A DNA stretch of 64,000 nucleotides, from NCBI RefSeq assembly GCF_004362745.1, contig NZ_SNXY01000008.1, forward strand, positions 62,001-126,000, written 5' to 3'. A model generated the notes under the pieces. That model did not search any database. It had not been told where the DNA came from and worked only from the letters and a program-made list of their open reading frames with translations. This document shows, in pieces, positions 1 to 24,074 of the stretch. Positions within the stretch are counted from its first letter, which is position 1; the number at the start of each line of letters is the position of its first letter. A program made the translations under genes and the position numbers. This DNA is from Oharaeibacter diazotrophicus (GTDB taxonomy: Bacteria; Pseudomonadota; Alphaproteobacteria; Rhizobiales; Pleomorphomonadaceae).

Positions 1-1358
1 AGCACCCCGGTCGCCGACCTTCCGACGGATGCCTGGAACGCCTTGATGGCCGCGAAGAGCTTCTCGCCAAAGCCGTCCACGGCAACGTTCGGCCACTGTC
101 CCGTTGCCGCCAGTAGGACCTGAATGTCGCGGCGGCGATCGATCGGCAACGCGAGGAAGGCAGCCTTGGCATCCTCGAAGGAGGGCATGGCAGCGGCCGT
201 GCTGTTGGAGGCGGTCCCTTCCGGCGCCCCGTAGCCGTTCGCGACGAGATGCCGCCGGAGTGCGTCCGGGAAGTCGAGCTTCCGGCGACTTGCCTCCGGG
301 CAGTTCTCGACCTTGCGGCCGTCGCTGCAGATCTCGACCTTCCAGTCTGAAGAGCGGTCGTAGAGAGGAAGCATCCTGGCCCAGGCCTCGCCGCCCTCTC
401 CAAGAAGCTGCTTCGTGGCCACCCACCCTGCGAGGTAGCCGTTGTTGCGCCAGACCTCAGGGTCTTGCCTTGCCTCGAACTCCAAGGATCTAAGGTCCTG
501 GACAACCCTCCTGCGGAAAGCCGGGTCCTTGGTCACGTTCCGGAGGCGGCCGGAACCGAACTTCTGGATCAGGGGCGGCCGGACCGATTCCGCGTAGGAG
601 GCGAACAGGTAGGAGAAGCTGTCGTCGCCGCTGACCAACTCGGCGATCCCGTCACCATCGACGTCGTCGGGAACGGGTTCGCTGTCCGCCTGGCCGAGGT
701 CGGCCATCGTCCAGACGCCCGGGCTTGCTTCGGACAACACGACGGTTGTCGTGCAGCAATGGGCACCGCCCGAGAAGGCGTCGAACATCACTTCGGGATG
801 TCCGTTGCCGCGGTCGAGTTCGACGAGGCGGAGGTTAGAGTCGTAGTCGGCGGCTTCCTCGAACCGATGCTTCAGGTCGAAGAGGGTCTTGCCGCCCTCC
901 GTGCCGACCACACGAGCCGTCCAGCCGTCCTTCGTCCGGTCCCGGGTCAGCTTGACTTCGAAGGCGCCGATGCGTGCGACGCTCGGCTTGTCCTTCTTCA
1001 CGGTCGCCGTCACGCCCGGCTGAGGCGGCATCCGCCACACGGTCTCGATGTAGGTCTTGCCCCTCGAGAGGACGGTGTCCTTCGGGAGCGACATCCACAG
1101 GTCGCTTCGGATCTTGTCCAAGGTCCCGGATCGCGGCTCCAAAACGGCGGCGTACCAGCCGTTCGCCGCCCGGACGACGCGCGCCTCGCCGCCATAGCGC
1201 CGGGCGATGCCGATCGCCTCGTCGAGGTCGGTCGAACTCGCGATCGTCACCCAGCGCTTGCCCGGCGGTGGATCGAAGGATTCCGCCTGGGCGGGTTCGG
1301 ACAAGGTCGCAACGACCGCGAAGACGACGAAGGAAAGATGGGCGAACACTCGGAACAT
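1..1358 (-). CDS. Exported peptidoglycan-binding-domain protein, C-terminus outside window
   Basis: The reverse-strand frame is open from an ATG at 1358 to the left edge (452 codons, no stop), so the C-terminus is missing. A hydrophobic N-terminus ending near SEPAQAES looks like a signal peptide. A SPOR-like stretch (about residues 35-70) is followed by a domain with a GDDVDGDGIAEL-type calcium-loop/FG-GAP-like segment (about 235-260). The last visible residues (about 400-452), with LPIDRRRDIQVLLAATG and AIKAFQASVG, resemble a PG_binding_1 repeat. It begins about 50 bp after hxsA on the same strand, so it is probably the last gene of the hxs operon. HxsA also ends in a PG-binding domain, suggesting both act at the cell wall. 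Domain calls are by eye; function is unknown. Confidence 0.75.
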   Translation of the reverse strand, partial: MFRVFAHLSFVVFAVVATLSEPAQAESFDPPPGKRWVTIASSTDLDEAIGIARRYGGEARVVRAANGWYAAVLEPRSGTLDKIRSDLWMSLPKDTVLSRGKTYIETVWRMPPQPGVTATVKKDKPSVARIGAFEVKLTRDRTKDGWTARVVGTEGGKTLFDLKHRFEEAADYDSNLRLVELDRGNGHPEVMFDAFSGGAHCCTTTVVLSEASPGVWTMADLGQADSEPVPDDVDGDGIAELVSGDDSFSYLFASYAESVRPPLIQKFGSGRLRNVTKDPAFRRRVVQDLRSLEFEARQDPEVWRNNGYLAGWVATKQLLGEGGEAWARMLPLYDRSSDWKVEICSDGRKVENCPEASRRKLDFPDALRRHLVANGYGAPEGTASNSTAAAMPSFEDAKAAFLALPIDRRRDIQVLLAATGQWPNVAVDGFGEKLFAAIKAFQASVGRSATGV

Positions 1359-1408
1359 GCGACACCCAAGGAACGGCCAGCGAACCGCTGGGCCGTCGGA
1401 GGAGAACG

Positions 1409-1987
1409 TCATTCGGCGACGATGCGAAGGGAATCGAGAACCTGGGGCGTGATCGTGCCCGTGACCTTCAGGCCGTAGTCGGTCTGCATCTTCTTGATGG
1501 CGTCCCGGGTGCCCGGGCCGACCTTCCCGTCGATCGCGCCGCCGTAGTAGCCATAGGCCAGCAGGGCGGTCTGCACCTGCATCACGATCCGCTTGAACTT
1601 GTCCGTGTTGCCTGGGAGGGCCGGGAGCGCCGCCAAGGCAGCGGGAGGCGTGTAGGTGGGCGCCGGCTGCGTATAGACCGGGGCAGGAGGCGTGTAGCTC
1701 GGTGTGGGATCCGAGTAGACGGGAGCCGGAGGCGAATAGGTCGAATAGCCCCCACCCGACGAGGAGCTATGGCTGCTGTGCGAGCTGTGGCTGCTGTGGG
1801 ATGAGTGGGATGAGTGTGACCTGTGCCCGGCGAGGGTGAATTTGTGGTTCAGCCGGAAGAGGTCGAACAGGCTGGGCTTCCGCTCGAGTTCGAGGTCCGG
1901 TTTATGCAGGACAGGAAGGGCGGACGCTGTCTGCGGCGGGATCAGCCCTGCCGCCAGCAGGGACGTGATGGCGAACCGACGCCTCAT
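1409..1987 (-). CDS. hxsA: His-Xaa-Ser repeat protein HxsA
   Basis: A 192-aa exported protein. A signal peptide (residues 1-23) is followed by seven uninterrupted His-Xaa-Ser triplets: HRS at 55-57, then six HSS at 58-75. Next come SSGGGY, a Pro/Tyr-rich linker with repeated PPAPVY/PTYTPP units (80-120), and a C-terminal PG_binding_1-like domain (about 133-190, with YYGGAIDGKVGPGTRDAIKKMQ). This matches the HxsA family defined with HxsB, HxsC and HxsD. The repeat is the presumed substrate of the two radical SAM enzymes encoded just upstream. Its ATG overlaps the hxsC stop (ATGA), showing translational coupling. The chemical modification is, as far as I know, not firmly established. Confidence 0.93.
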   Translation of the reverse strand: MRRRFAITSLLAAGLIPPQTASALPVLHKPDLELERKPSLFDLFRLNHKFTLAGHRSHSSHSSHSSHSSHSSHSSSSGGGYSTYSPPAPVYSDPTPSYTPPAPVYTQPAPTYTPPAALAALPALPGNTDKFKRIVMQVQTALLAYGYYGGAIDGKVGPGTRDAIKKMQTDYGLKVTGTITPQVLDSLRIVAE

Positions 1988-3066
1988 AACGGATGAACCC
2001 CCGAAAACCCCCGGCCCTCAGGATACCACTCGAAGAAGCCGCCGCAACGGTCGCGTGCAGTGCAGGCGGAGCATTCCTTGAGGTACTTCCGCTTCCAGTC
2101 GCTGATCGAAGACGGGGCGAGGTATCGGTAGGGTTCCGGCACCGTGCAGAGCGGGAAGTTGTAGAGCACTGCCTGGATGCCCCGCGCACGGGCGAGGTCC
2201 AGCGCTTCGGCGACGTCCGCGAAGGCAACGCTCGTGTCGGCGAAGAGGTCCGGCCAATCCCGCCGGGCGTAGCCGATGTTCTCCAGATGCATGATCGCCC
2301 AGCGGACCGCGAAGGGGATGTGGGTCGTCACGAAACGCGCGAGCCGCGGCAGGTCAAAGAGGTTGCGCCTCATGACCACGGTCCGCAGTTCTACGGCCGC
2401 ACCCGCCCGGCAGAGGAGAGCTAGGCCGTCCAGCAAGGCACCGAACGCACCGATCTTGCCGACGATCCCGTCGTGGGTCGCTGGATCGGTCGAATAGATC
2501 GGCACCCCCCAGGTGACGGCACTCCGCACGGTTCGCAACGCATCGATGTCGTCCGCCGTGAAGTGCTGGGCGTTCGAGAGGACGTGGAATGACAGGTCCG
2601 GCCGAGCGGCCGTCACGCGCTCGAGCATTACAAGGAGTTGGTCCTTGAACAGCGTCGGCTCGCCCCCCGAGATGCCGATCGTCGCGTTCGAGGGAGCCAA
2701 CAGCGCAGCCGTTTCGAGGTGCGCGAACATGTCGACGTGCTTGGCCTTCGGCGGCTGGGAGCACATGACGCAGAGCTGGTCGCAGCGTTCGGTGACGAGG
2801 AGCGTGTTGTGAGCCGAGGACGCCCGGATCAGGCGATGGCCAAGGTTCCGGCCCGGCAGCACGAGGAGGACGTCTCCGTCGGCCTCGTCGGGTGAAACGC
2901 CCGAAACCGACACCCGGCCCCCGGGGCCGTCGAAGACCAGTTCGTCTCCCGCCTCCTCGAGGTAGATGTCGAACGGCGTCTCCCGAAGGCCTGCGTCGGC
3001 GTTCAGGCGAACCACGAACGGGTCGCTTCGTCCCGGTGCGCGGATCGGCAGTCGCAACGGGATCAT
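1984..3066 (-). CDS. hxsC: His-Xaa-Ser system radical SAM maturase HxsC
   Basis: A radical SAM enzyme of 360 aa if it starts at the ATG at 3066, which overlaps the hxsB stop (ATGA); an upstream in-frame start at 3129 would overlap hxsB by 67 nt and is less likely. The 4Fe-4S/SAM motif C-x3-C-x2-C is at about 95, 99 and 102 (RCDQLCVMCSQPPK), followed by a GGEPTL motif typical of peptide-modifying radical SAM proteins. A C-terminal cysteine group (ECSACTARDRCGGFF) resembles an auxiliary cluster region. It sits between hxsB and hxsA in a four-gene overlapping operon. The presumed substrate is the His-Xaa-Ser tract of HxsA; order of action relative to HxsB cannot be read from sequence. Confidence 0.93.
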   Translation of the reverse strand: MIPLRLPIRAPGRSDPFVVRLNADAGLRETPFDIYLEEAGDELVFDGPGGRVSVSGVSPDEADGDVLLVLPGRNLGHRLIRASSAHNTLLVTERCDQLCVMCSQPPKAKHVDMFAHLETAALLAPSNATIGISGGEPTLFKDQLLVMLERVTAARPDLSFHVLSNAQHFTADDIDALRTVRSAVTWGVPIYSTDPATHDGIVGKIGAFGALLDGLALLCRAGAAVELRTVVMRRNLFDLPRLARFVTTHIPFAVRWAIMHLENIGYARRDWPDLFADTSVAFADVAEALDLARARGIQAVLYNFPLCTVPEPYRYLAPSSISDWKRKYLKECSACTARDRCGGFFEWYPEGRGFSGVHPL

Positions 3067-4469
3067 GGCGCCCTCCGGACGAGCGTCCTCGGCCATTCGG
3101 AGACGCCCGCCCACTTCGCGAGCGACCACCGCGTCGCGTCGTCGTCCCTGGTCACCAATTCGAACACCTTGTCGAAGAGCGCCATGTGCCGACGGCAGAA
3201 CCAGGTGTCCAGCCGGGGCACGTCCACGCGGCCATACCGTGAAAGGTCGTCGACCACGTCGGTCCCGCAGAAGGCTTGGTAGGGGCAGTGGATGCAGTCT
3301 GGATCGAAGTTGTTCATCGAGGATGTGTTCAAGGCGGCCCTGCGATCGGCGTCGATCCCGGTGGCAACGTGGCCGACCGAGAGGTCGACCTGCCCGATCC
3401 GTGACAGCATCCGGGCTTCGTCGGTCGGGTACAGCCGCCCATCGTGGTCCACGACCACGTAGTCCGTCGCCAACAAGTTGGGGTTCCGGATGTCGACGTG
3501 ATGGTCGAGGCCGGAGGCGAGGACGCGGCGCAGCGCATGGGTGAAGTAGTATTCCTCGACCACATGCTGCCTCTCAGCGTTGCGCCGGATCAGCATCTCG
3601 ATGAAGTCGGAATGGAGCGCGTTCCACGCCTCGATCTCGCCGTCCCTCATCCCGCGCCGCCGGGCGAAACCCTGGTGGTTGATGGGCCGCAGGTAGATCG
3701 ACCGGATGCCGAGGCTCTCGTAGCGGTCCACGAGCGCGGCGAAGTCCGGCGGCCGGAAGGGATCGATCGTGGGCAGGGCGGAGATGCGGCCGGGGCCGAG
3801 CCGTGCAGCCGCTTCCTCAAGGTTGGAGAAGAACCGCTGCGTTAGGTCGGGGTCCGACGTTCTCTGGCGTTCATGGGTTTCGAAGTCCCCATCGAGCGAG
3901 GTGCTGACGAACGTGTCCGGCGCATCCAGGAAAGCCCACTGCTGGGCGTCGAGGCGCTGGAGGTTGGTGCAGACCACGAACTCCACCTTGGCGAAGCGCT
4001 TCCGGGCGAAGTCCCGGACCGCATGCATGAGGTCGAGCCTCAGCGTCGGTTCGCCGCCCTGGAACTCGATCTTGATGTCGTCGGTCGGGAGCGCATCCAG
4101 GAACCGAAGGGTCGAGGCGAGGGTCTCGTCGGTCCAGTCGAAGCCGCGGGCGGTCTCCGGTGCCCGCGAGACCTGACAGTAGCCACAGGCGAGGTCACAG
4201 CGGAGGGTTGGTACGAGGATGACGTAGGCGAGCTTTCCGGCTGACGCCTGACGGGCTGACCAGCGCCAGGCGAAGGCGAGATGCGGGAGGTCTCCCTCCC
4301 GCTCGTAGGCATGTCCGCCATCCTTCAGAAATGCGAGATCGTCGTCCGTCAGGCATCCCTGGCCATACCGGTCCACGAACGCCCGGTCAGCGACGAACCA
4401 CCCTCCGGCGTCGTCGGCGAGCACCGTTCCGTTCGCCAGATCGCGGAACTTCAGGGGCCAGACCGTCAT
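3063..4469 (-). CDS. hxsB: His-Xaa-Ser system radical SAM maturase HxsB
   Basis: A 468-aa radical SAM protein. The C-x3-C-x2-C motif is at 91, 95 and 98 (LRCDLACGYCQVSR), followed by QGGEPTLRLDLM. The C-terminal part has a SPASM-like cysteine set (DCIHCPYQAFCG and a later WFCRRH, about residues 400-425), expected to bind auxiliary Fe-S clusters as in peptide-modifying enzymes. The start ATG at 4469 overlaps the hxsD stop (ATGA), and the stop overlaps the hxsC start. It belongs to the HxsB family by context and motifs. It probably acts on HxsA in the cytoplasm before export; the product of the reaction is not known to me. Confidence 0.93.
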   Translation of the reverse strand: MTVWPLKFRDLANGTVLADDAGGWFVADRAFVDRYGQGCLTDDDLAFLKDGGHAYEREGDLPHLAFAWRWSARQASAGKLAYVILVPTLRCDLACGYCQVSRAPETARGFDWTDETLASTLRFLDALPTDDIKIEFQGGEPTLRLDLMHAVRDFARKRFAKVEFVVCTNLQRLDAQQWAFLDAPDTFVSTSLDGDFETHERQRTSDPDLTQRFFSNLEEAAARLGPGRISALPTIDPFRPPDFAALVDRYESLGIRSIYLRPINHQGFARRRGMRDGEIEAWNALHSDFIEMLIRRNAERQHVVEEYYFTHALRRVLASGLDHHVDIRNPNLLATDYVVVDHDGRLYPTDEARMLSRIGQVDLSVGHVATGIDADRRAALNTSSMNNFDPDCIHCPYQAFCGTDVVDDLSRYGRVDVPRLDTWFCRRHMALFDKVFELVTRDDDATRWSLAKWAGVSEWPRTLVRRAP

Positions 4470-4717
4470 CGCCCGCCAACCAGGTCCAGGAGGCTGCGCC
4501 GCATGTCCATGGTCTCGGAGAGGATACGCTCACGGTAGAGCGCGTATGCGATCTCGCGCTCCACGTCGGAGGCCCCTTGGCCATCTGGGATGGAGACCAG
4601 GATGCCTCCGTCGGCGGCTTCGAAACCCCAGCCAGGATGCAGGTAGCGGAGCCGCGTGAGGGCGGCATCAAGCACTGGCTGGAAGACGTCGGCCACAGGA
4701 ACAGATGTGCTCTGCAT
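4466..4717 (-). CDS. hxsD: His-Xaa-Ser system protein HxsD
   Basis: An 83-aa protein, first gene of the hxs operon, ending in an ATGA overlap with hxsB. Size, position and the conserved-looking C-terminus (YALYRERILSETMDMRRSLLDL) fit the HxsD family, a small partner protein always found with HxsB and HxsC. By analogy with other radical SAM peptide systems it could help deliver the substrate, but this is inference; no catalytic motif is visible. About 175 bp separate it from the upstream lipoprotein gene, enough for its own promoter. Confidence 0.85.
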   Translation of the reverse strand: MQSTSVPVADVFQPVLDAALTRLRYLHPGWGFEAADGGILVSIPDGQGASDVEREIAYALYRERILSETMDMRRSLLDLVGGR

Positions 4718-4892: not shown

Positions 4893-5597
4893 CTACTGCA
4901 CCTTCTCGCGCTTCATCGTCAGCCTGATCTGGTGCAGGTCCCGACCGACGCGGAAGTTCACGATGTAGTTCTTTGGATCCGTCAGCTTGGCGACCTTGGC
5001 CGGGTCGAACTGGAACAAGCCGCCGTAGCTCTCTCCGGGCAGGATCGTGTTGTCCATCAGCATGGTGTTCTCGAGCGCGGCGACGTTGAGTTCGCCCGCC
5101 GTCGTCGCGGCATTGATGTTCGACGATGCGAGGGCTGCCCCGACGCCCGAATTGTATCCCGAGTAATTGTAGTTGTTGCCGTTTACGTTGACGGACCCGG
5201 CGTAGTAGCCGCCTGCGGCCCCGGCCACGCCGCCGATGATGGCGAGCGCGATCGCCTGGCGGCGCGCCTCGGCCTGCAGTTCGTCAACGTTCAGCACCTT
5301 CAGGGGCTTTCCGGTGTCAGCCTGGGTGACGGAGATGTCGGCGTACCGGAACGTGACGGGGGCGCGACCGACGTTGCGGATCAGCGCCACGAAGGCAGGC
5401 CGCGGTAGCTCCTGGGCGCGTGAGGCGGGAGCAATGATGACCTGAGTGGAGCCCACCTGGGAGAGGACCGCCTCCGTGCCGGAGCGGACCACGACCTGCT
5501 GCCCGGCTCGCGTCGCGAAGCTCGTCTTCTCAACGGTCACGCAACCTGACAAGGCGGTCGCGGCGAGGACTGCGAACGCGATCTTGAACCTGGACAT
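4893..5597 (-). CDS. Putative lipoprotein of unknown function
   Basis: A 234-aa protein started at the ATG at 5597 because it gives a clean lipoprotein signal: MSRFKIAFAVLAATALSGC, lipobox LSGC with Cys19 as the acylated residue. An upstream in-frame start would add 28 residues and bury the signal. The mature part has a short Gly/Ala-rich segment (IIGGVAGAAGGYYAGS, about 120-135) and an Asn/Tyr-rich stretch (NGNNYNYSGYNSG), then a C-terminal beta-rich region with FRVGRDLHQIRLTM. I do not recognise the family. It lies between the VWA/PP2C/kinase triad and hxsD on the same strand, so it may link the two modules at the envelope. Confidence 0.8.
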   Translation of the reverse strand: MSRFKIAFAVLAATALSGCVTVEKTSFATRAGQQVVVRSGTEAVLSQVGSTQVIIAPASRAQELPRPAFVALIRNVGRAPVTFRYADISVTQADTGKPLKVLNVDELQAEARRQAIALAIIGGVAGAAGGYYAGSVNVNGNNYNYSGYNSGVGAALASSNINAATTAGELNVAALENTMLMDNTILPGESYGGLFQFDPAKVAKLTDPKNYIVNFRVGRDLHQIRLTMKREKVQ

Positions 5598-5758
5598 AGT
5601 GCACGGGAAGCGTTGGTTTAGCCGGAGCACATACAACGCTGGCGCGATCTCGGCGTCAAGGGTGCGCAAGTGGGTTTCCACAACATCTGAGTGCAGCGCG
5701 ATAAGTGCCTTCTTGGCCGGATCGGAAACTTGCCAGAACCCCTACGCCACGCTGGCGG

Positions 5759-7681
5759 TCAGTTCAGGTCGATCTCCGCCTGCTTCATAGCTCGGAAAGC
5801 CTCGATCAGTTTCTGCGTCGGCCGACTTCTGGCAGTGAGCGCATGGCTCCTGAGTTGTTCCAGTTCGATCGGGCCGCGGGCCAGTGCCTGCTCGATCTCG
5901 GCGCGTCGGCGGGCGATGCCGTCCCTGACCTGCCGGATGGCGGCTGGATCCGTTCCGGCCGAAGGGTTGAACACGAACTTGCGCTCGATGCTTTCCCGCC
6001 AGTCGACGAGCTTCCGCGTGGTGGCGTCGCCGAAGCTGGGGACCGCACGGACCTTCTGATAGGTGACGTCGAAGGCGTCCTCGATTCCGTAAGACGACAG
6101 AATTTCCTTTCGGCCGCCACCGATACCACTGATCTTCGCTCGGGCGATCAGGTGTCCCTCTAAGAATCGCTGAAGCTGTATCTCACGGCGACGGCGGTCC
6201 AAATCGTCCAGACGCGACTTCTCAAGCGCCGGAAGCTCTCTGTGTTCTCCGGCAAACGTCCTGAGAAGGGATTTTTTCTGCTCGAACTGCATGGGTCCCG
6301 TCTCCAGATCCCACTCGCGCCGCGCGGCCGTCCAATCGCTTTCTGTACGAGCTTTGGTTGCCTGAAGCTGCTGGATTTCACCTCCCCCGCCGAAAAACAG
6401 GTATGCGGCGACGAAGAGGCCAACAAAAGCAAAGGGCAGTCCACCTGCGATAAGCGCTATCGACAGTCCGGCGACAAGCACTCCGCCAAGGCGTCGGATG
6501 TTGCGCCTCTGCTGGACTTCCTTTGCAGTCCGCGACTTGGCCATCCCGGAAGGCATGGGTATCACCTGTGCCGGATCGGGCGAATTCCCCGGTCCGAGAA
6601 CACGGTCAATGGCCGCGATCGCCGCCGTCAGGTCGAAGTTGCCCAGCGAAGGCGCGGCTGTGGACGACCCAGATGCAGTGAAGAGCGTGACGCCCATCCC
6701 GTTTTCGAGGCGGCACCATGGACACCCCGGAGCATTCTTCGGGTGATGGTGGGCAGGATTCGCCCTGCAGGGGATCAACTCGGCTTCGAAGCGGCTCAGG
6801 GCGCCGATCCAGTCGGTAGCAGAGGGTCTGCTGCGGTAGAGGCTCGGGTTCGACTGGAAGGCAACTTCGAACATGGACGCGAGGTCAGGCGTCAAGTCGC
6901 CGAGCGTGGGCGCGAACGGAGGCGGGTCCATCCGCGTCTCCGCCTTCCTCTGGATGCTGTACGCGAAGCGCCCCTCCCTGATCGCCTTCTCGATCGGCAT
7001 GTCACCCTGGCCGCCGTACCGCCCGGCGAACGGATGCCGTCCCATGAACAGGAGTTGGAAGGCGATCACGGCAAGCCCGAACCCGTCGTGAGACGGCTCG
7101 CGGTCGACCTTATCCAGTACCGCGCCCTGAAGTTCAGGGGGCGTGTATTCGCCGACGCCGACGCGGCACCTGTAGACCATCGTGCTCGACCGGACTTGGA
7201 AAGAGTCGGCGTCGATGAGCGTGACGGTCGCCTGGTCGCTGACAAGGATGCCGCTGTGGTTTATGTCGCCGATGACGCATCCGGTCTGGTGTACGCTCCC
7301 GATGGCCCTGGCAACGTTCGTGGCCGTTCGCGCGAGGAACCGGAAGTCCACCTTCGGAAATTCGATCTTTCGGCTGCCGGGCGCGTAGAGTTCGTGGACG
7401 GGCTTGACCCCACCGACCTTGCGCATCGTGAAGCCGACGAACTCGCCTCGGTCTCCGAGCAGCGTTTCCATAGGGAAGGCGACCAGGGTGGAGCGCTTGT
7501 GCAGTTCGCTCGCCACCATCGTTGAGATCTTCTCGCGCCGCTCCAGGTGCTTCCCGTCTGTGTAGACTTTGGCGGCTATGCCTGTATCGCCGTCAACGTG
7601 GAACACGGTCCCCTCGCCGCCCTTCCCGAGAACCGAGGTGACTCGGATCTGGCGGCCCGCGCCCGTTCGATAATCTCTCAC
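5759..7681 (-). CDS. YegI-like protein kinase with TM segments and HhH-like C-terminus
   Basis: A 640-aa kinase of the TerY-P (YegI) type. The N-terminus holds a glycine loop GKGGEGTVF (19-27), a likely ATP-binding Lys38 in AAKVY, a catalytic-loop equivalent IGDINHSGILV (Asp139) and LIDADSFQV as the DFG equivalent (157-159). A CPWC pair near 320 suggests a metal site. Hydrophobic segments around 405-440 form one hairpin or two TM helices, followed by a charged coiled-coil-like stretch and a C-terminal helix-hairpin-helix-like region (about 515-585: KISGIGGGRKEIL, VRAVPSFGDATTRKL). The ATG overlaps the phosphatase stop (ATGA). It is expected to act at the membrane opposite the co-encoded PP2C. 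Confidence 0.85.
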   Translation of the reverse strand: MRDYRTGAGRQIRVTSVLGKGGEGTVFHVDGDTGIAAKVYTDGKHLERREKISTMVASELHKRSTLVAFPMETLLGDRGEFVGFTMRKVGGVKPVHELYAPGSRKIEFPKVDFRFLARTATNVARAIGSVHQTGCVIGDINHSGILVSDQATVTLIDADSFQVRSSTMVYRCRVGVGEYTPPELQGAVLDKVDREPSHDGFGLAVIAFQLLFMGRHPFAGRYGGQGDMPIEKAIREGRFAYSIQRKAETRMDPPPFAPTLGDLTPDLASMFEVAFQSNPSLYRSRPSATDWIGALSRFEAELIPCRANPAHHHPKNAPGCPWCRLENGMGVTLFTASGSSTAAPSLGNFDLTAAIAAIDRVLGPGNSPDPAQVIPMPSGMAKSRTAKEVQQRRNIRRLGGVLVAGLSIALIAGGLPFAFVGLFVAAYLFFGGGGEIQQLQATKARTESDWTAARREWDLETGPMQFEQKKSLLRTFAGEHRELPALEKSRLDDLDRRRREIQLQRFLEGHLIARAKISGIGGGRKEILSSYGIEDAFDVTYQKVRAVPSFGDATTRKLVDWRESIERKFVFNPSAGTDPAAIRQVRDGIARRRAEIEQALARGPIELEQLRSHALTARSRPTQKLIEAFRAMKQAEIDLN

Positions 7682-8451
7682 CGCCGTACCCCGAGTATCA
7701 GGGACTTATCGTCGTCGGTTCGATCGCAGACGGTCTTTCCGTCTAAGTAATCGCGCAACGGCTTGGAGAGCGAGGCATCATGGCCACTGACGATCGACTG
7801 AGCCACGGGAGCTGACATCCGGTCAAAGAATGGTCCGTGAGCGGTACGCTTTGTGTGATCAAGGACCAGTCTCTCGATCCCGTCTGAAAACACGGCAACG
7901 CGGTCGAGGCGAATAGGGAGCGGCACGATCGAGATCGCGGGCATCGGATCATCAGTCACGAAGATTGTGGTCGACGCGTACTCCCCGTGGAACGGCCAGG
8001 AAGGAACGATCCAGTCGACCGTTCCCTCTTCCCTGACGACGGCGGCGCCGTCACCGACGTGAACGATAACGGCGCCCCACGGTCCAGCCAGAACGCCGAC
8101 GAGAGTTGCGGCGCAGTCTCGCGGCCGTACCCGAGCCCGTCCAGCAAATGTGTTCACCCGCTCGCGAATGCCATCGAGCCAGTCGAGGACCTCCTCCTCG
8201 CCAATCTGATCGATACTTCTCCCGGACCCGAAATGCACGGAGGCGGCACGGAGGAATCCGGTGCACACCATTCGAGCGCCGGCTTCTGCGTGGCTGGCAG
8301 TGCCTGCTCCGTCGGAAACCACCGCCGCCAGCACGTTGCCGGACGCGGCCTCCAGTTCCATGCAGAGGGCAAAGTCCTGGCACGGAAGCCCGGACTTGAC
8401 GTGTGAGGTCCCGATCGACCTCGCGAGTGTCCAGCGCCAGGTATTGAGCAT
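7678..8451 (-). CDS. PP2C-family serine/threonine phosphatase (YegK-like)
   Basis: A 257-aa PP2C-type phosphatase started at the ATG at 8451, which overlaps the stop of the VWA gene (TGATG); a start five codons further upstream is possible. N-terminal features are GTSHVKSGLPCQDF and VVSDGAGTASHAEAGARM, supplying the metal-binding Asp of the PP2C fold, then HVGDGAAVV and a C-terminal DDKSLILG (metal Asp). The stop overlaps the kinase start (ATGA). With its neighbours it forms a kinase/phosphatase/VWA triad, in which it likely reverses phosphorylation by the kinase. The true substrate is not visible, although the VWA protein is the usual suspect. Confidence 0.87.
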   Translation of the reverse strand: MLNTWRWTLARSIGTSHVKSGLPCQDFALCMELEAASGNVLAAVVSDGAGTASHAEAGARMVCTGFLRAASVHFGSGRSIDQIGEEEVLDWLDGIRERVNTFAGRARVRPRDCAATLVGVLAGPWGAVIVHVGDGAAVVREEGTVDWIVPSWPFHGEYASTTIFVTDDPMPAISIVPLPIRLDRVAVFSDGIERLVLDHTKRTAHGPFFDRMSAPVAQSIVSGHDASLSKPLRDYLDGKTVCDRTDDDKSLILGVRR

Positions 8452-9128
8452 CAGACGGAAGCCCAACCGTCCGGTGTCGTCGGATTCGCGAGCGGGACAG
8501 CATCACCGGGGTTGGACCGCGATACCGACCTGAGCGACGACGAGAGCCAGGCGAAGAGATCCCGGAAGCGGAGTTCCTTGAGCGCCAGCGGTTGCCGTGT
8601 GGAGATCTGCGTAAGGATGTCCATCCGGGCGCCTTCGACGCCGATCGCGAAGAAGCTGAATGCCTTTTCGGCTTCGCCCTGCTTCACCTGGGCCGCGGCG
8701 TTCGACCAGGAATCCGTCGGCCCTCCGTCAGTGATGAGGAAGATCCAGGGGCGGTAGTAAGAGATGCCGTTGGACTTATAGACGTTCTTCCGGTCACAAA
8801 GCAGGGCGAGACCCTGCTCGATCGCCGACCCCATCGGCGTGTCGCCCTGGTCGGTGAGGGTCGGCGGCACCCACGACTGGACGCCCGTGAAGTCGGAGAG
8901 CACCTGGACGGGACCGAAGGTAACGATGCCGACCTCCACTCGCTTTGCGGCCAGGGAGTCCGCGTAAAGCTCGTCACGGAACAGAGCTAGGCCTTCATTC
9001 AACTCGCGAATTGGATTGCCCTTCATTGAGCCAGACACGTCCAACAGCAGCAAGCAGGGGCACCGGGGTTCGGGATTGTCGACGAACTCAGCTCCGCCGA
9101 AAGGCTGCTGTTCGAAGGGATTGGACAT
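8451..9128 (-). CDS. VWA-domain protein, TerY/YegL-like
   Basis: A 225-aa protein made almost entirely of a von Willebrand factor A domain. The MIDAS motif DVSGSMKG is near residue 30, with a downstream Thr in GDTPMG and Asp in LITDGGPTD. The start at 9128 is preceded by GGAGCG at ribosome-binding distance; an upstream in-frame extension to 9350 looks non-coding. It resembles TerY/YegL, the metal-ion-binding VWA partner of PP2C phosphatase and kinase in the TerY-P triad. It is the first gene of the triad and overlaps the phosphatase (TGATG). Its promoter should lie in the 258-bp divergent gap to the small gene at 9387. Confidence 0.87.
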
Positions 9129-11898: not shown

Positions 11899-13455
11899 TC
11901 AGGCGGCCCCGAGGAGGCGTGCTTCGAGGCGATCGAGCTTTGCGCGCCCGTACATTTGCCGCTTCACCAGCTTCAGCTTGTTCACTTGGCCCTCCGTCTG
12001 GCCGTTTGACCAAGGCTCAGAGATCGCGCCCCGAACCGCGGATGCGTCCCTTGGTATGCCGCGAGCAAATGAGACCAGCAGTGTCGACTCGGCATCCTGG
12101 ATCCAAGACGCGAGATCATCGACTGCTCGGCTGCGGATCATGGAATGAAACCGGTCGATCAGCTCTCTCGCCTCGGCCAGAGTGGGCACTCCGGCTTCGA
12201 TCGCGGCGATCATGACCGTCTCCGCTTTCGACATATGATCTCGCTTCAGCGTCATCAGACGCGCAATGGTCCTTGCGGATGGAATCTTACGAAGATCGGA
12301 TCCCGAGATCTGCTCCGATCGCCTGCGCCGCGTGGCCCATTCGCCGATGACGCGGAGCGATCCCATGAACCCCTGGCTTCGGAGACGACGCCAGAGTTCG
12401 GCGCTGTTCCGGCAGCCTGCTTCCCATTGAGCGTCGAGATAGGGAAGGTGCGGGTCGAGTGACCCCTGCCGCGTCCGGAACACATCGGTGCGCTCGCCCC
12501 GGATGATCTGGCGAACCAGCTTCCGGCTCCGCCCCGTTCGCCGTACGATCTCCTTGATCGCGAGGCCGTCGGCCGCAAGACCGGCGACCACCCGGTTCGT
12601 CTCTTCCCGCCGCAGGTAACCTTCGTACTGGATCCGCTCGGCCGAAGTCAGGAGCTTCGGGTCGACCGTCATCGCTCCGAGCGCGGCGCGGATCGGCTGC
12701 ATCGATGTCCTCGCCGCGTCGAGAAAAGCCGAGCTGGCATTCTCCATCAGGTGCCATCTGTCCGCGACATGAACGACCTCCGGCAACGCGAGCGTTGCGG
12801 CCTCACCATACCCGCCACCCCGATCGCGAGAGACGATCCGGATCTCGCGGTGATCGGCGAGCCATGCCGCGACTGTGGCGATCTCCCGGTCAGGCAGCAG
12901 TTTGACAATCCGCCGCCGATCGAGGTCGCAGAGGATCGAGCCGTAACGGTGGCTCGGGCGGAATGCGAAGTCGTCGATGCCGACCGCCGTCAGACGATCA
13001 CTGCACTGTCTCGCCCGGCGCCGGACGACACGTAGCAAGGTGTCGTTGCTGACCGGCATCATCAAGCGCTTGGCGAAACTCGCGGCCGGACGACCACCGA
13101 GCGCCAGACCGAGATGATGGACGATGCACTCCATCCGGCCCGTGCGCCGCGCCCGCTCCGGAACAGCCTCACCGAAGCGCTCGGCGAAGATCTTGCTCCG
13201 GCAGGTGCCAACGTCGCAACGAAACCGGCGCGTGATCAACCTGAGCGGGACCGGCCGTCCCACCAACGGTAGGTCGGCCACACACCGAACATACCGACTA
13301 TGCACCTGCCGGGAAGGCAATGAGCTGGAGGGACATACCGCCTGCCTACTCCGGGCCGATGCGGTTACCACGAGGCCCCAGTCAACGGCTTCGAAGCGCT
13401 CGACCGTGAACCCGGGCGGAATGAGCGACGACAGCGAAATGGCTGTAGGCAGGGC
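11899..13455 (-). CDS. tnpA: ISL3-family transposase
   Basis: A DDE transposase of roughly 515-520 aa. It has an N-terminal zinc-binding region, the catalytic core with VGIDDFAFRP (first Asp), VVHVADRWHLMENA (second Asp) and the ISL3 signature SNGQTEGQVNKLKLVKRQMYGRA (catalytic Glu) near the C-terminus. The start is uncertain: coding clearly begins near ALPTAISLSSLIPPG (about 13455-13440), preceded by a GGAGG, but no ATG or GTG is there. The open frame continues upstream through the IS end into the nuclease fragment. The first zinc cysteine pair reads CPSSSLP rather than CPxC, so one ligand is lost; activity is doubtful. Confidence 0.85.
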   Translation of the reverse strand, partial: ALPTAISLSSLIPPGFTVERFEAVDWGLVVTASARSRQAVCPSSSLPSRQVHSRYVRCVADLPLVGRPVPLRLITRRFRCDVGTCRSKIFAERFGEAVPERARRTGRMECIVHHLGLALGGRPAASFAKRLMMPVSNDTLLRVVRRRARQCSDRLTAVGIDDFAFRPSHRYGSILCDLDRRRIVKLLPDREIATVAAWLADHREIRIVSRDRGGGYGEAATLALPEVVHVADRWHLMENASSAFLDAARTSMQPIRAALGAMTVDPKLLTSAERIQYEGYLRREETNRVVAGLAADGLAIKEIVRRTGRSRKLVRQIIRGERTDVFRTRQGSLDPHLPYLDAQWEAGCRNSAELWRRLRSQGFMGSLRVIGEWATRRRRSEQISGSDLRKIPSARTIARLMTLKRDHMSKAETVMIAAIEAGVPTLAEARELIDRFHSMIRSRAVDDLASWIQDAESTLLVSFARGIPRDASAVRGAISEPWSNGQTEGQVNKLKLVKRQMYGRAKLDRLEARLLGAA

Positions 13456-13489
13456 GACCTCCGTCAGAAATCGCCAATCCGCTCCTAAA

Positions 13490-13513
13490 CTGCATCGGAT
13501 CTGAGTCAGACCC
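13490..13513 (-). repeat. ISL3 terminal inverted repeat, right
   Basis: Read inward on the minus strand it starts GGGTCTGACTCAGATCCGAT, matching the left repeat. It lies within the continuous frame shared with the nuclease pseudogene. Confidence 0.8.
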
Positions 13514-13779
13514 AAGATTGCACGCCCAAATACATCATAGGGGATGTCCACATAATGCCAGCGCGCCGTTTCCGGATGGGACAGCCGGTACTCGTCCGCA
13601 AAGAGCGCCGCGGTCGCCAGCGGGGCACCCGATAACATCGCGCGGATCGCGCTCCGCGCTTCCGGGCTCAACCGGCTTTCGGCCAGCTGCGCCACGATCA
13701 CATGACCTTGCGGTCCCCAAGCCCATGCCGGCGATGTCTAAAACCAGAAGGCCGCCGCCCACAAGGCAAGTCGCTTCAT
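13514..13779 (-). pseudogene. S1/P1 nuclease, N-terminal fragment cut by ISL3
   Basis: Starting at the ATG at 13779 the frame reads a signal peptide MKRLALWAAAFWF, an in-frame TAG (13740-13738), then TSPAWAWGPQGHVIVAQLAE. The mature S1/P1 nuclease start (Trp1, then GxxGH) and HPETARWHYVDIPYD are recognisable, including the Trp, His and Asp used for zinc binding in this family. About 75 residues remain before the IS end at 13513; the rest of the gene is absent from the window. Two lesions are visible: a stop codon in the signal peptide and truncation by the ISL3 element. After the stop the frame stays open into the transposase, creating a chimeric frame that should not be read as one protein. 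Confidence 0.85.
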
Positions 13780-16517: not shown

Positions 16518-18149
16518 CTATCTTAATACAACCATGTAAAAGCAGCGACGCACCCCCTCCACCGGGTACTGGAATGTGGGTGTGTTCGGCCGCTCTGTGA
16601 CCAGCTGACCGCGTTCGCGGAGCACCTTGGCAGCATCGGTCAGTTCACTCACGGTGAGACGAAGAGCTCGCCGTGCCGTTTCACCCCTGACGAGCGCCCA
16701 GAGGTTGCGCTTTTGTTCCAGGCGAATGAAATCGGCGCCCTCCGCCTCCTTCCAAGCTAACTCGGTCGAATAGTCGACAGGTCGGCGGTCCGGATCGGAA
16801 AGCCAGGTAATGAGCCGCTTTGCGTTGCGCTCGCCGATCTGCGCTCGGTCGGCGCTCTTCGCGAGAGCTGTAGACGCGCATCGGCCAACGGCCCGGAGCA
16901 GCCGTTCCTTTGCCCAAGGGACCGTACCCATGTCGATAGCCAAACGACCTGCAGCGTAGACATGCGCGAACGCATCAAGCGTTCGGTTCTGTACGCTGTT
17001 GAGACCAGCAAACTCATTCCGCAGCATAAACGCGGCCTTGTAGGTCTTTAGGCGCTCAGTGGCCTTAACGCGGTGCATTATCAGCAGGCGAACGAAGGCC
17101 TCCAATGCCGTGCCATGCTGTTGGGCGACGGCAGCCTCGACCTTTTTGACGAATAGCTTCGCCCACTCGGCCCGCGCCTCCACCGCTACGTCCTCGGGGA
17201 ACATGTCAACGATTCCAAAGAAACTGCTGTCCGCGGGCTTTACGAACACGTCAATCAACCGGACGGCTGATCCGGTCGTGCGGTGACGGGGCCGGTTCTG
17301 ATCCTCTTCCGTGGACAGGACGAGGGAGCGGAAGCGACGCGACGCTATGCCGTTTTTCGTCTCGTAGACTTTGCCACGCAGTTTAGGGGAACCGCTGGAC
17401 AGAACGTAGGACATGGTCTCCATAACCGCCGGGCGACTGGCGGCGGGAACGTCTTCCAGCGAGTCTAACGTGAAAGGCAGGTCGGAATTCGCCTGCGCCC
17501 TCTCCTCCAGTCCTGTAACTGTTGCGTTCCATTTTCCCGTGAAGGTCGAGCCGAATACAGACGCTGCGGCCAGCAGCGCGGTGGATTTTCCACTACTTGA
17601 TTTCCCGAAAAGATTAAATCCAAACCCACCTGCCTCAATGCCGAAGAGCTTGAGCGTCGGCGCGACGAACGTAGCCGAAATCAGGAACATCATCGCCGAC
17701 GAATGGCAGGCTGCAGCGGCAACGTTGTTCTTCCACTCCTCTAGCGTTCCAGCCTGCGTCAGTACGGGCGTGTCCAGTCCGGGCAACACCGGTACTCTCC
17801 TTCCCGAAGGAAGCTCGAGGTCCCCAAGCCGGAAAGAGGTCATGTCATCGGACCACCCGGTCGCAAGGATCGCGATGGTATTGGCACGCCCCTCCTCTGA
17901 AGCAGCGTAGGTGCGCAGGCTTTCTTCCATCGCGACGATATTGCTGGGTTCGCAGAACGCACCATCTGCCCCTTTGTCGAAGAGTTCGGCCCCCAGTTTA
18001 CGCGGGTTACGGAAATCGCCAAAGTTTACAAACGCAACGCCAGTCTCGCCTGACATTTTTGGATAACTGATCTCCACAATATGAGAGCCGCTCGGCAATA
18101 CGTAGATGCGCTGGAACGTTATATTTTCTTTGGATACATATACTGTCAT
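16518..18149 (-). CDS. DUF927-domain protein with P-loop
   Basis: A 543-aa protein. The ATG at 18149 is chosen because GGAG lies seven bases upstream; in-frame ATGs at 18161 and 18197 are weaker. The centre has a P-loop, FNLFGKSSSGKST (about 182-190), followed by LDSLEDVPAASRPAVMETMSYVLSSGSPKLR, characteristic of DUF927 proteins of phages, plasmids and integrative elements that resemble helicase/primase-associated ATPases. The C-terminal third is probably a separate helical domain with a winged-helix-like end (LTVSELTDAAKVLRERGQLV). DUF927 proteins usually serve replication of mobile DNA, so this may be the island's replication gene. No primase domain is attached. Confidence 0.8.
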   Translation of the reverse strand: MTVYVSKENITFQRIYVLPSGSHIVEISYPKMSGETGVAFVNFGDFRNPRKLGAELFDKGADGAFCEPSNIVAMEESLRTYAASEEGRANTIAILATGWSDDMTSFRLGDLELPSGRRVPVLPGLDTPVLTQAGTLEEWKNNVAAAACHSSAMMFLISATFVAPTLKLFGIEAGGFGFNLFGKSSSGKSTALLAAASVFGSTFTGKWNATVTGLEERAQANSDLPFTLDSLEDVPAASRPAVMETMSYVLSSGSPKLRGKVYETKNGIASRRFRSLVLSTEEDQNRPRHRTTGSAVRLIDVFVKPADSSFFGIVDMFPEDVAVEARAEWAKLFVKKVEAAVAQQHGTALEAFVRLLIMHRVKATERLKTYKAAFMLRNEFAGLNSVQNRTLDAFAHVYAAGRLAIDMGTVPWAKERLLRAVGRCASTALAKSADRAQIGERNAKRLITWLSDPDRRPVDYSTELAWKEAEGADFIRLEQKRNLWALVRGETARRALRLTVSELTDAAKVLRERGQLVTERPNTPTFQYPVEGVRRCFYMVVLR

Positions 18150-18639
18150 TTTAGTCTCCATCTTTTGCTGCGACCACATCATGCTCGCGCGTTTCACACG
18201 GAAGCGCTGCTTGCGCTCCCGCTCTTACTTTACAGGACGATAGAAATTAGAGATGTTGGGGGTAGCAATTGTCGGAATACGGGCGCGTTCAAATCGCCAC
18301 CGAGGTCTCTGAGCAAATATTCAATCGGTCTTCTACTCAAGTTACTCATGTGAATCGGCGTGGCACCCCGCTCCCGCTGGGCCGGGGCACCAAATCGCAA
18401 AGACGCGAGACAGATCAGTGACGTAACAATCTAATTGCTTTCCCTGCTCCTGCCGCCCCCCAACACACCGTAAGCAGCCAGAAGTCGCGTCCACCAAGTC
18501 TAAGGTCATACCACTTCCTGCCTAAAACAAACAGATATTGATACAGATTACAGAGGACACTATAGCCACTTCTAATTTCATTGTTCGGCTAATAAGCCGA
18601 TCCGTGTACTTGCCGTCGACCGGAGTGCGAATGCCTACT
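18150..18639. other. Intergenic region with promoter of the DUF927 gene
   Basis: About 490 bp with no supportable gene. It should contain the promoter of the DUF927 gene (minus strand) and includes a motif copy at 18226-18236. A GC-rich imperfect inverted repeat lies near 18360-18392. The rest is AT-richer and featureless. Confidence 0.5.
18226..18236 (-). promoter_or_regulatory. Shared island motif, copy 2 (CCTGTAAAGTA)
   Basis: Minus-strand copy with CTGTAAAG in place of TTGTAAAG, about 77 bp upstream of the DUF927 start at 18149. Confidence 0.4.
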
Positions 18640-19356: not shown

Positions 19357-19387
19357 GTGAGAGTGCTCCTATGCTGCGGCACACCCT

Positions 19388-19400
19388 CTCTTTACAAACC
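19388..19400 (-). promoter_or_regulatory. Shared island motif, copy 3 (GGTTTGTAAAGAG)
   Basis: Minus-strand copy 32-44 bp upstream of the ATG at 19356. The flanks resemble copy 4: CGAG precedes and a G/A-rich run follows. Confidence 0.45.
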
Positions 19401-19552
19401 TCGTCGAGGACGACTTGCCTGCCTTCACTCCGCAATGCGGGCGAACGCCCCGGGCACGGACGCTGACGACCGACAAGTGCTTTCCACATTGCGCAAGCAG
19501 GAATTTTCCAAATAGAATGGCGGGGAGCATGCTCCCCGCCGCCCTTTCTTAC

Positions 19553-20473: not shown

Positions 20474-20498
20474 AGTATGGGGCTCCGCATGTATGCAC

Positions 20499-20514
20499 CT
20501 CCACTTTACAACTC
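20499..20514 (-). promoter_or_regulatory. Shared island motif, copy 4 (CGAGTTGTAAAGTGGA)
   Basis: Minus-strand copy just upstream of the ATG at 20473, followed by GG. It shares CGAG, TTGTAAAG and a G/A-rich tail with copy 3. Confidence 0.45.
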
Positions 20515-20609
20515 GGTTCCATAGCGAGAATGGGGTTCGTGTGAACGACGATCACAAGTCATGGGGTGCGTAAGCAGTTTCCGCACCGCCCGACAACTGG
20601 GGAACTAAT

Positions 20610-22711: not shown

Positions 22712-23944
22712 TCATTGTTCGGGCCGACTTAGCTTCGACCGCTCGCCTTTCATCATTGCCGCGACGAAAGATTTTGCCGTACGATCCGCGACACCACGCG
22801 CCGGATCTTCATCCAGATGAGCGTACTTTTGAGTTGTTTGGACCTGTCGATGACCAAGAGCGCGTCCCAAGATATAGATATTCTCTCGGTTACGCATGGC
22901 AAGTGACGCGAAAGAGTGACGCAGATCGTGGAGGCGGACATCTCTCAGACCCGCGACAAATCGAATTCTCTGCCATGCGTCTTGAATGGCCACAAAATAA
23001 CCGCCCGGTCTGTCGCCAGCAAAAACGAAGGGATTTCCCTCCACTCTGGGCATAGACCTGATAACTTCGATGGCCTCTTCCGGCAGATTTAGATTTTTCG
23101 CGCCGGTTTTTGAATCTGGTAGCCGCGCTATCCGTTCATCGAATCGAATCCACGCCCATTGCAGCTTCTGGACTTCAGAAAGCCGCGCGCCAGTCAGCAA
23201 CAAAACCCGTACTATTCCTACAGCACGAGCGTCCTCCGGCGCCCGCCTTTGAAAGGGAAAGTCTGTACCATCGATTGATTTCGGATAACCGCCTAACGCC
23301 GTTTCGAGCGCTTGCCCAAGCCTCATCAATTCACTTTCAGACAAATAGCGCTCCCGGCTCTGCTCACGATACTTCTCAATACCTACGCAGGGATTACTTC
23401 CCTGAGGCAGAACCCCCCACTTAGCCGCTATAGTGAACATGTGAGACAGTAGAGCAAAGCATCGATTGGCATTCACAGGATTTGTTTTTCGACTGGACAT
23501 AAACTCCGCTAATGCCCCTGCCTTAATCGCGTCCATCCGCAACGGTCCAAATGCAGGAATAATGTGAAGACGGAGGTTTCTCTTCTCCTCTTCTACTGTT
23601 CGCGGACCTTTGTGCAGAGCGGAGTAACTGCTTATATAGCGCTCAGCGAATGCTTCCAGCGTCGGGACTGACCTTCTCTCGTCCCTTAGTGCCGCCGGAT
23701 CGCGACCGGCTGCAACTTCACCGAGAAGCGCTTTCGCACGTTGGCGGGCGGTCTCCGGCGTCCACGGGGAACCGTGAGAACCAATGGTTATGAAGCGTTG
23801 CCGGCCATCAGACCGGTACTTGAGCACATAGGTCGCATCGCGCTTCTGCCTCCGAACACCGAACCCTCTGGTCTCGGAGTCCCAAAGGCAGCCGCCCGGT
23901 TCAAGCGCATCAACCTTGGCCTTTGTGATCTTTCCTGAAGCCAT
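22712..23944 (-). CDS. int: Tyrosine recombinase/integrase of a tRNA-targeting island
   Basis: A 410-aa integrase started at the ATG at 23944 (GGAG upstream); an ATG-like start at 23965 is possible. The N-terminus (KVDALEPGGCLWDSETRGFGVRR, YRSDGRQRFITIGSHG) is the DUF4102/P4-integrase arm-binding domain. The catalytic domain shows LLLTGARLSEV (Arg), LHDLRHSFAS (His-x-x-Arg) and LGHRQVQTTQKYAHL (His and nucleophile Tyr), so all catalytic residues are present. Its start lies 130 bp from the tRNA-Arg 3' fragment at 24075, the expected site of action. Lower GC and AT-rich flanks agree with acquired DNA. The enzyme looks intact, so the island may still be mobile. Confidence 0.93.
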   Translation of the reverse strand: MASGKITKAKVDALEPGGCLWDSETRGFGVRRQKRDATYVLKYRSDGRQRFITIGSHGSPWTPETARQRAKALLGEVAAGRDPAALRDERRSVPTLEAFAERYISSYSALHKGPRTVEEEKRNLRLHIIPAFGPLRMDAIKAGALAEFMSSRKTNPVNANRCFALLSHMFTIAAKWGVLPQGSNPCVGIEKYREQSRERYLSESELMRLGQALETALGGYPKSIDGTDFPFQRRAPEDARAVGIVRVLLLTGARLSEVQKLQWAWIRFDERIARLPDSKTGAKNLNLPEEAIEVIRSMPRVEGNPFVFAGDRPGGYFVAIQDAWQRIRFVAGLRDVRLHDLRHSFASLAMRNRENIYILGRALGHRQVQTTQKYAHLDEDPARGVADRTAKSFVAAMMKGERSKLSRPEQ

Positions 23945-24074
23945 GCCCGTGCTCCTAGCTACCATCTAGCTACCACGAGGCATCAAGTCCGGCAAGTTCG
24001 GATCAATCAGCGTCTCTTCTAATGACATGATATATAAACGAAAATCAACCGTCATCCATCACCAGCAATCTCAA

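What the first reader, a model, noticed from the sequence alone, without database searches (positions are those of the whole stretch)
1..4717. Intact His-Xaa-Ser radical SAM operon on a tRNA island, with an extra PG-binding gene
hxsD, hxsB, hxsC and hxsA are each joined by ATGA overlaps, and HxsA has seven uninterrupted His-Xaa-Ser triplets next to a PG-binding domain. The gene immediately after hxsA also encodes an exported PG-binding protein, so the modified peptide and this neighbour may meet at the cell wall. Radical SAM chemistry on a regular HxS tract is little understood, and the operon is complete and compact. To my knowledge the modification and function are not settled.
Basis: partly seen in the sequence, partly recalled or inferred. 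Interest (0 to 1): 0.75.

Follow-up and report, generated by a model that had tools for sequence, protein, structure and literature searches.

The report
Peptide-modifying operon joined to defence genes
A known but unexplained set of bacterial genes that chemically modifies an exported histidine-serine protein is intact here, and its neighbours, here and in many other bacteria, suggest it may help mobile DNA and its host resist phages or rival elements.

Summary
The hxsDBCA operon is real and intact: HxsB, HxsC and HxsA pass their NCBIfam cut-offs; all four junctions, including hxsA to the next gene, are ATGA overlaps; HxsA has seven HxS triplets. Two details fail. No tRNA lies in the window or the 19 kb to its left. 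The 'PG-binding neighbour' is the front of an 861-aa secreted trypsin-like protease cut by the window edge.

New context: a VWA-PP2C-kinase (TerY-P) triad lies upstream on the same strand. Related triads sit beside hxs in other arrangements: convergent in Rhizobium tropici, directly downstream in Sinorhizobium, and separately in Cupriavidus with a distant HxsB. All 15 plasmid records with a VWA of 74-80% identity are hxs-adjacent.

Flanks of 26 dereplicated hxs loci match 172 and 110 PADLOC families per 13-locus batch; three control batches match 16, 3 and 3. Of four E. coli hxs loci opened, three lie in ssrA islands, one in a P2-like prophage.

Best reading: a mobile, cell-wall-acting conflict or exclusion module. 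Its defence role is inferred, not shown.

The parts
3..1412 (-). N-terminal part of a secreted protease gene that runs past the left edge (whole: L004:827-3412, 861 aa; PG_binding_1 427-472, Trypsin_2 662-791)
   Evidence: ATGA overlap with hxsA
1409..1987 (-). hxsA, exported substrate protein with HxS tract and PG_binding_1 domain
   Evidence: TIGR03979 162.5 bits; PF01471 60.1 bits
1763..1825 (-). seven His-Xaa-Ser triplets (HRS HSS HSS HSS HSS HSS HSS)
   Evidence: tract conserved in 24 aligned HxsA-type proteins
1984..3066 (-). hxsC, radical SAM protein (open frame reaches 3129; ATGA-overlap start at 3066)
   Evidence: TIGR03977 298.7 bits
3063..4469 (-). hxsB, radical SAM protein
   Evidence: TIGR03978 379 bits; C91, C95, C98 invariant in 22 aligned sequences
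4466..4717 (-). hxsD, small accessory protein, beta-alpha-beta-beta-alpha fold predicted
   Evidence: alignments; AlphaFold pLDDT 93.2
4893..5681 (-). lipoprotein-like gene (LSGC lipobox by eye; likely start near 5597) between triad and hxsD
   Evidence: no Pfam hit
5759..7681 (-). TerY-P / YegI-type protein kinase
   Evidence: PF00069 25.5 bits, below its cut-off of 31.7; 33-34% to E. coli YegI-type proteins
7678..8466 (-). PP2C phosphatase of the triad (GTGA overlap with the kinase)
   Evidence: PF13672 124.2 bits
8451..9350 (-). TerY-like VWA protein of the triad (homologues align from about residue 70)
   Evidence: PF00092 30.8 bits; 63-64% to E. coli YegL-type proteins
22712..23965 (-). 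tyrosine integrase near the right end of the lower-GC region
   Evidence: PF00589 64.4 bits; GC step near 26 kb

Best explanation
A complete His-Xaa-Ser system inside a nine-gene same-strand cassette: VWA - PP2C - kinase - lipoprotein - hxsD - hxsB - hxsC - hxsA - protease. Proposed mechanism: HxsB and HxsC, helped by HxsD, modify the HxS tract of HxsA in the cytoplasm (inferred from the families); HxsA is exported and held at the peptidoglycan (inferred from its N-terminus and PG-binding domain); the wall-held modified tract, with a system-specific secreted or signalling partner, acts against incoming phage or rival elements at the envelope (inferred); the membrane kinase/phosphatase/VWA triad senses or gates that response (inferred). 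Shown here: family identity, operon structure, recurrent linkage to TerY-P triads in several arrangements, location in defence-rich and mobile DNA. Not shown: the chemistry, export, and any protection.
For: Families. Operon overlaps. Triad next to hxs in four arrangements: window; R. tropici type, convergent; Sinorhizobium type, same strand 29 nt after hxsA; Cupriavidus pMTS1, hxsA2-D-B-C then one gene, then the triad, with a distant HxsB of 30%. Plasmid records with a VWA of 74-80% identity: 15 of 15 are hxs-adjacent (within about 9 kb); with Cupriavidus 16 of all 51 VWA records. In 33 hxs-bearing genomes the VWA occurs in 4, and all 4 carry it beside hxs, though these are near-identical. VWA tree: the window's VWA and seven other hxs-linked ones form one clade at 100/99. 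HxsB tree: the triad label needs 5 changes, at least 4 forced by starred branches. Defence enrichment: hxs flanks 172 (129 proteins) and 110 (125) PADLOC families, random stretches 16 (117) and 3 (117), IS3-centred accessory stretches 3 (126). Mobile carriers: 415 plasmid records, a Leptospira phage, a P2-like prophage (arrangement in 27 of 5426 E. coli genomes), ssrA islands, next to a Gabija-like nuclease/helicase pair in 3 genomes. CBASS genes near hxs in three Mesorhizobium/Aminobacter plasmids.
Against: None of the 20 hxs loci has the triad in the stretch held, and none of 17 class-sampled triad loci has hxs in the 4.4-20 kb held, so neither needs the other. PADLOC does not call the triad or Hxs as a defence system. 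Co-location in islands can be hitch-hiking. Around the window itself only one strong defence model was seen, a TIR protein about 7 kb from hxsA; of ten other window genes scanned nine gave none and one a weak JAB match. PADLOC counts are of families, not systems or loci, and many models overlap. Several loci carrying the triad (L110-L112, L119, L204) were found by searching with the VWA, so the tree counts are not a random sample.
Confidence: 0.42

Rival explanations
1. Hxs makes a diffusible or wall-released RiPP-like peptide (signal or antibacterial): the downstream secreted protease trims modified HxsA and frees the HxS core. Its place in defence islands is because such peptides travel on the same mobile elements.
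For: The protease gene overlaps hxsA by ATGA and has a strong Trypsin_2 match; L122 has a relative 43 nt after hxsA. Exported serine proteases that mature RiPPs are established (NisP, CylA, LicP; PMC10885120, passages). HxsA2-type proteins without the PG-binding domain look like short precursors.
Against: The protease follows hxsA in only the window and L122 among the loci compared. No transporter was recognised among the nine genes of the cassette. The PG-binding domain would retain most HxsA proteins at the wall.
Confidence: 0.25
2. Metal or redox function: the modified His-rich tract binds metal at the wall and the TerY-P triad is the matching metal-responsive switch; the MauG-like di-haem protein in marine relatives further oxidises the product.
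For: TerY-P is hypothesised to be a metal-sensing phosphorylation switch (Anantharaman 2012 as cited in PMC11090510, passages). A CCP_MauG protein (62.3 bits for one member) with a small partner follows hxsA in 11 of 42 loci. One P-type ATPase gene lies about 5 kb from hxs in L105.
Against: No metal gene was recognised in the cassette or among the cluster sequences I read of those recurring beside hxs; the flanks are instead rich in defence genes.
Confidence: 0.15
3. Neutral co-residence: hxs, TerY-P and defence genes share islands because islands collect cargo, with no joint function.
For: 0 of 20 set-B hxs loci carry the triad and 0 of 17 sampled triads carry hxs; 4 of 42 set-A hxs loci, near-identical, carry it.
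Against: IS3-centred accessory DNA of hxs-bearing genomes shows 3 PADLOC families against 110-172. The triads of the window, Rhizobium and Sinorhizobium form one clade, all hxs-linked, in three gene arrangements, and Cupriavidus is a separate case.
Confidence: 0.18

Closest known systems
His-Xaa-Ser (Hxs) system, NCBIfam TIGR03977/03978/03979 (described by Haft and Basu; that paper not held, cited through PMC9062424)
   Same: HxsB, HxsC and HxsA over cut-off; gene order D-B-C-A as in annotated plasmids
   Different: hxsD is not recognised by any NCBIfam model; joined here to a TerY-P triad, a lipoprotein-like gene and a trypsin-like protease
TerY-P triad / E. coli yegL-pphC-yegI
   Same: VWA, PP2C and kinase adjacent in the same order; VWA 63-64% and kinase 33-34% identical to E. 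coli relatives
   Different: belongs to an hxs-linked clade; the E. coli records were not opened to look for hxs; PADLOC does not call the triad
Stand-alone TerY-P-like anti-phage systems (Gao 2020, as cited in PMC11090510)
   Same: same three protein types
   Different: the proven ones have an OB-fold on the kinase; the kinase here shows Cys pairs and a hydrophobic stretch by eye; no protection tested
Serine proteases that mature RiPPs (NisP, CylA, LicP; PMC10885120)
   Same: exported serine protease gene beside a substrate gene
   Different: trypsin-like, while NisP is subtilisin-like; not shown to cut HxsA; not a constant partner of hxs

Membership tests
Hxs system | radical SAM HxsB over the TIGR03978 cut-off | tested here: met
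   379 vs 370 bits
Hxs system | radical SAM HxsC over the TIGR03977 cut-off | tested here: met
   298.7 vs 267.9 bits
Hxs system | HxsA with His-Xaa-Ser tract over the TIGR03979 cut-off | tested here: met
   162.5 vs 121.65 bits; seven triplets
Hxs system | HxsD recognised by an NCBIfam model | tested here: not met
   0 families at E<=10
Hxs system | HxsD by position and alignment with other HxsD proteins | tested here: met
   directly before hxsB; R62, R73 invariant with annotated HxsD of L093, L094 and L096 in the set of 24
Hxs system | chemical modification of the HxS tract | not testable with these tools
   needs mass spectrometry
TerY-P triad | VWA + PP2C + Ser/Thr kinase as adjacent genes | tested here: met
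   PF00092 and PF13672 over cut-off, PF00069 below cut-off; homologous triads
TerY-P triad | zinc ribbon (or OB-fold) on the kinase | tested here: inconclusive
   Cys pair motif seen by eye in the translation; no Pfam match
Known anti-phage system | match to a PADLOC model of a named system for Hxs or the triad | tested here: not met
   only weak cross-matches to PD-T4-6, MkoA and pVip; hxsD was not scanned
Known anti-phage system | protection against phage | not testable with these tools
   needs plaque assays
RiPP recognition element (for HxsD) | PqqD-like winged-helix fold | tested here: inconclusive
   model is beta-alpha-beta-beta-alpha at pLDDT 93.2; no PDB match at E<=0.001 and no PqqD in the 50 rows shown of 1028

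The most novel reading that the evidence does not exclude
Hxs is an unrecognised envelope-acting anti-phage or element-exclusion system: radical-SAM-modified HxsA held in the periplasm blocks DNA entry or triggers a wall-linked response, with interchangeable partners (TerY-P kinase triad, protease, di-haem oxidase, DUF6119/TIGR04141 gene) directly after or before hxsDBCA. It would explain carriage by conjugative plasmids, ssrA islands, a P2-like prophage and a Leptospira phage.
Probability: 0.35. Interest if true: 0.88.

Novelty: new variant of a known kind. Interest (0 to 1): 0.7.

Why it matters
Neither the chemistry nor the purpose of Hxs is given in the passages I could see. Tying it to defence islands, prophage and plasmid cargo, and a kinase/phosphatase triad turns a vague 'peptide modification' annotation into a testable idea: a modified, wall-held peptide that helps exclude phages or plasmids. 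It would also add radical SAM peptide chemistry to the tools of bacterial immunity, and it is not rare: 415 plasmid records and 151 of 5426 complete E. coli genomes have a match (141 of them over at least 80% of the query).

Tried and rejected
HxsD as a RiPP recognition element: the model does not look like PqqD (fold of PqqD recalled) and no PDB match reached E<=0.001; left open. PG-binding gene as the constant partner of hxs: rejected. tRNA island: not supported. Hxs as a common phage gene: hxs of the E. coli prophage has no near match among 50,697 named phage records, and only 2 phage records match HxsB by protein. Known structures: HxsB matches only anaerobic sulfatase-maturating enzymes weakly, HxsC nothing. 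Papers: 'His-Xaa-Ser' 3 papers, 'HxsB' 3, HxsA/C/D terms 25, of which two of the 20 listed concern these proteins, 'radical SAM' with 'TerY' 3, none linking them as far as the listing and one paper's passage show, 'radical SAM', 'defence island', 'peptidoglycan', 'RiPP' 34, of which the 20 listed titles name no Hxs, 'HxsA' with 'prophage' and 'anti-phage' 0. A search for DUF6119/TIGR04141 showed neither term in the 8 papers listed. The 2022 E. coli functional selection (PMC9519451, term search only) has no 'radical' or 'His-Xaa'. The papers of Haft and Basu, Anantharaman 2012 and Gao 2020 are not held (their DOIs were recalled).
Full report
1. What is there. On the minus strand, in order of transcription, lie VWA (9350-8451), PP2C (8466-7678), kinase (7681-5759), a lipoprotein-like gene (5681-4893), hxsD (4717-4466), hxsB (4469-3063), hxsC (3066-1984), hxsA (1987-1409) and a protease gene that starts at 1412 and runs off the left edge. 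hxsD/B, B/C, C/A and hxsA/protease are ATGA overlaps and kinase/PP2C is GTGA; the two gaps between listed frames are 77 nt (kinase to lipoprotein) and 175 nt (lipoprotein to hxsD). HxsB, HxsC and HxsA pass the curated cut-offs. hxsD has no model match but aligns with other HxsD proteins and is predicted as a confident small beta-alpha-beta-beta-alpha protein without a significant PDB relative.

2. Corrections to the finding. The downstream gene is not simply a PG-binding protein. Taken whole from the genome it is 861 aa with PG_binding_1 at 427-472 and Trypsin_2 at 662-791. The relative after hxsA in L122 (626 aa) shows the same N-terminal region (36% identity) and a trypsin-like end by eye; its first 399 aa have no Pfam match. 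A relative follows hxs in 0 of 42 loci, some cut short, and 1 of 20. Its N-terminal domain is found in 46 of 297 genomes of the order, against hxs in 11 of 397. There is no tRNA, though an integrase and a GC step suggest an island.

3. HxsA. In 24 aligned HxsA-type proteins the HxS tract is the conserved part (H61, S66, H67, S69, H70, S72, H73 invariant), while the PG-binding domain is missing in L094, L110 and the phage protein L096. So the tract is the likely substrate and wall binding an option used by most of those aligned. The chemistry is not known from anything I could read: PMC9062424 (passages) says only that the motif putatively relies on HxsB and HxsC for maturation.

4. The TerY-P link. 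The triad beside the window's hxs is of the type described in PMC11090510 (passages) and related to E. coli yegL-pphC-yegI, where YegI is a membrane kinase and PphC dephosphorylates it (PMC13232886, passages). The same triad adjoins hxs in R. tropici and relatives in convergent orientation (in L119 hxsB is interrupted by a transposase), in Sinorhizobium directly after hxsA on the same strand, likewise in Rhizobium T136 though with a broken PP2C and kinase, and in Cupriavidus pMTS1 next to an HxsA2-type hxs set. In Agrobacterium pAt (L099) only the C-terminal part of the kinase remains after hxsA. Of 51 plasmid records with a VWA match, the 15 at 74-80% identity are all hxs-adjacent (by annotation, by tblastn, or by comparing coordinates), plus Cupriavidus; the six others that I opened (L113-L118) have none within 9 kb, or 4.5 kb on the side cut by the record start in L115; the remaining 29 were not opened. 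Background: 17 of 384 other alphaproteobacterial genomes have such a VWA at E<=1e-40, and none of those 17 has hxs in the 4.4-20 kb held. In the VWA tree (32 rows, three near-copies dropped) the window and seven other hxs-linked rows form one clade at 100/99; Cupriavidus is apart; 0 of 500 shuffles were as low. In the HxsB tree (66 rows; nine near-copies, L096, L119 and fragments of 380 aa or less left out) the label, on 8 rows, needs 5 changes, 4 at least. The link has thus survived rearrangement or arisen more than once. Against it: 0 of 20 set-B hxs loci have the triad, and 4 of 42 set-A loci do, all near-identical.

5. Defence context. From 61 HxsB loci, 36 representatives under 80% identity were chosen, 29 of them with at least 15 kb; 26 were scanned and three (L135, L137, L138) left out for the size cap. 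Up to ten nearest open frames of at least 150 aa per locus (nine in the random controls), without hxs genes, were scanned against PADLOC at E<=1e-15; one HxsA frame of L129 was dropped by hand. Results: 172 families for 129 proteins and 110 for 125. Controls in hxs-bearing genomes: of 40 stretches asked, 27 came and 26 were long enough: 16 families for 117 proteins and 3 for 117. Accessory control: of 20 IS3-centred stretches, 17 were at least 15 kb and the first 13 were used: 3 families for 126 proteins. Only the first 25 rows are shown per scan; among them the hxs flanks hold GajA/GajB (Gabija), DpdF, MkoA/MkoB, an oligonucleotide cyclase and phospholipase effector (CBASS type, recalled), ThsA/ThsB (Thoeris), AbiEi/AbiEii, PD-Lambda-1, a type IV restriction enzyme, OloA/OloB, reverse-transcriptase systems and PifA; the controls hold a Pycsar-type set with TIR and TM effectors and an E2 model, mad2/mad3, a nicking enzyme, DrmC and QueC. 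One hxs batch includes a triad locus (L045). The counts are of models, many of which overlap, so they show direction, not a number of systems or loci.

6. Mobile carriers. HxsB relatives occur in 415 plasmid records at E<=1e-30, 316 of them Klebsiella, in a Leptospira phage, and 151 of 5426 E. coli genomes match hxsB-hxsC DNA (141 over at least 80% of the query), always chromosomal. Of four E. coli loci opened, three lie in islands at ssrA and one inside a P2-like prophage between an ogr-like gene and tail genes. As far as the passages tell, that is neither of the two P2 hotspots described in PMC9519451. The arrangement hxsC-hxsA-VgrG is found in 27 genomes, hxsA followed by the TIGR04141 gene in 70, and hxsA followed by an ATP-dependent nuclease in 3, in the one opened with a UvrD helicase next. 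The window's own genome has a TIR-type candidate defence protein about 7 kb from hxsA (L003:10776-13061, PDC-S73).

7. Reading. Sequence identity of the Hxs system is firm. A working link with TerY-P is likely (my estimate 0.6). A role in defence or exclusion at the envelope is the most economical reading of carriers, neighbours and the wall-bound substrate, but nothing here tests protection; the best explanation as a whole gets 0.42.

Noticed in passing
L057:12985-14593 and 10 other loci: In marine alphaproteobacteria and some relatives hxsA is followed by a small membrane-protein-like gene and one or more MauG-like di-haem proteins (PF03150 in the one scanned), in 11 of 42 loci.
   Followed up: partly
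L045:13113-14297 and relatives: In Rhizobium a secreted protein of about 390 aa follows hxsA (9 of 42 loci); by eye it resembles periplasmic ClpP-fold proteins (recalled), no Pfam match.
   Followed up: partly
L041:13070-16303: After hxsA lie two secreted proteins that by eye look like GH25 lysozymes, the second with a caspase-like part.
   Followed up: no
L099:11107-11988: Agrobacterium pAt keeps only a kinase C-terminal part right after hxsA, as if the triad had decayed.
   Followed up: no
L128, L132, L213: In enterobacteria a gene of about 535 aa (annotated TIGR04141 in L213) directly follows hxsA and may be a fifth operon member there.
   Followed up: partly
window 11899-13701: One open frame joins an S1/P1 nuclease start to an ISL3 transposase, a possible insertion in a nuclease gene or a chance read-through.
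   Followed up: no
window 16518-21305: DUF927 protein and a weak JAB-like protein in the low-GC region.
   Followed up: no
L097, L101, L102: CBASS genes lie near hxs in three Mesorhizobium/Aminobacter plasmids: next to hxsA in L097, next to hxsD in L102, and with a response-regulator gene between in L101.
   Followed up: partly
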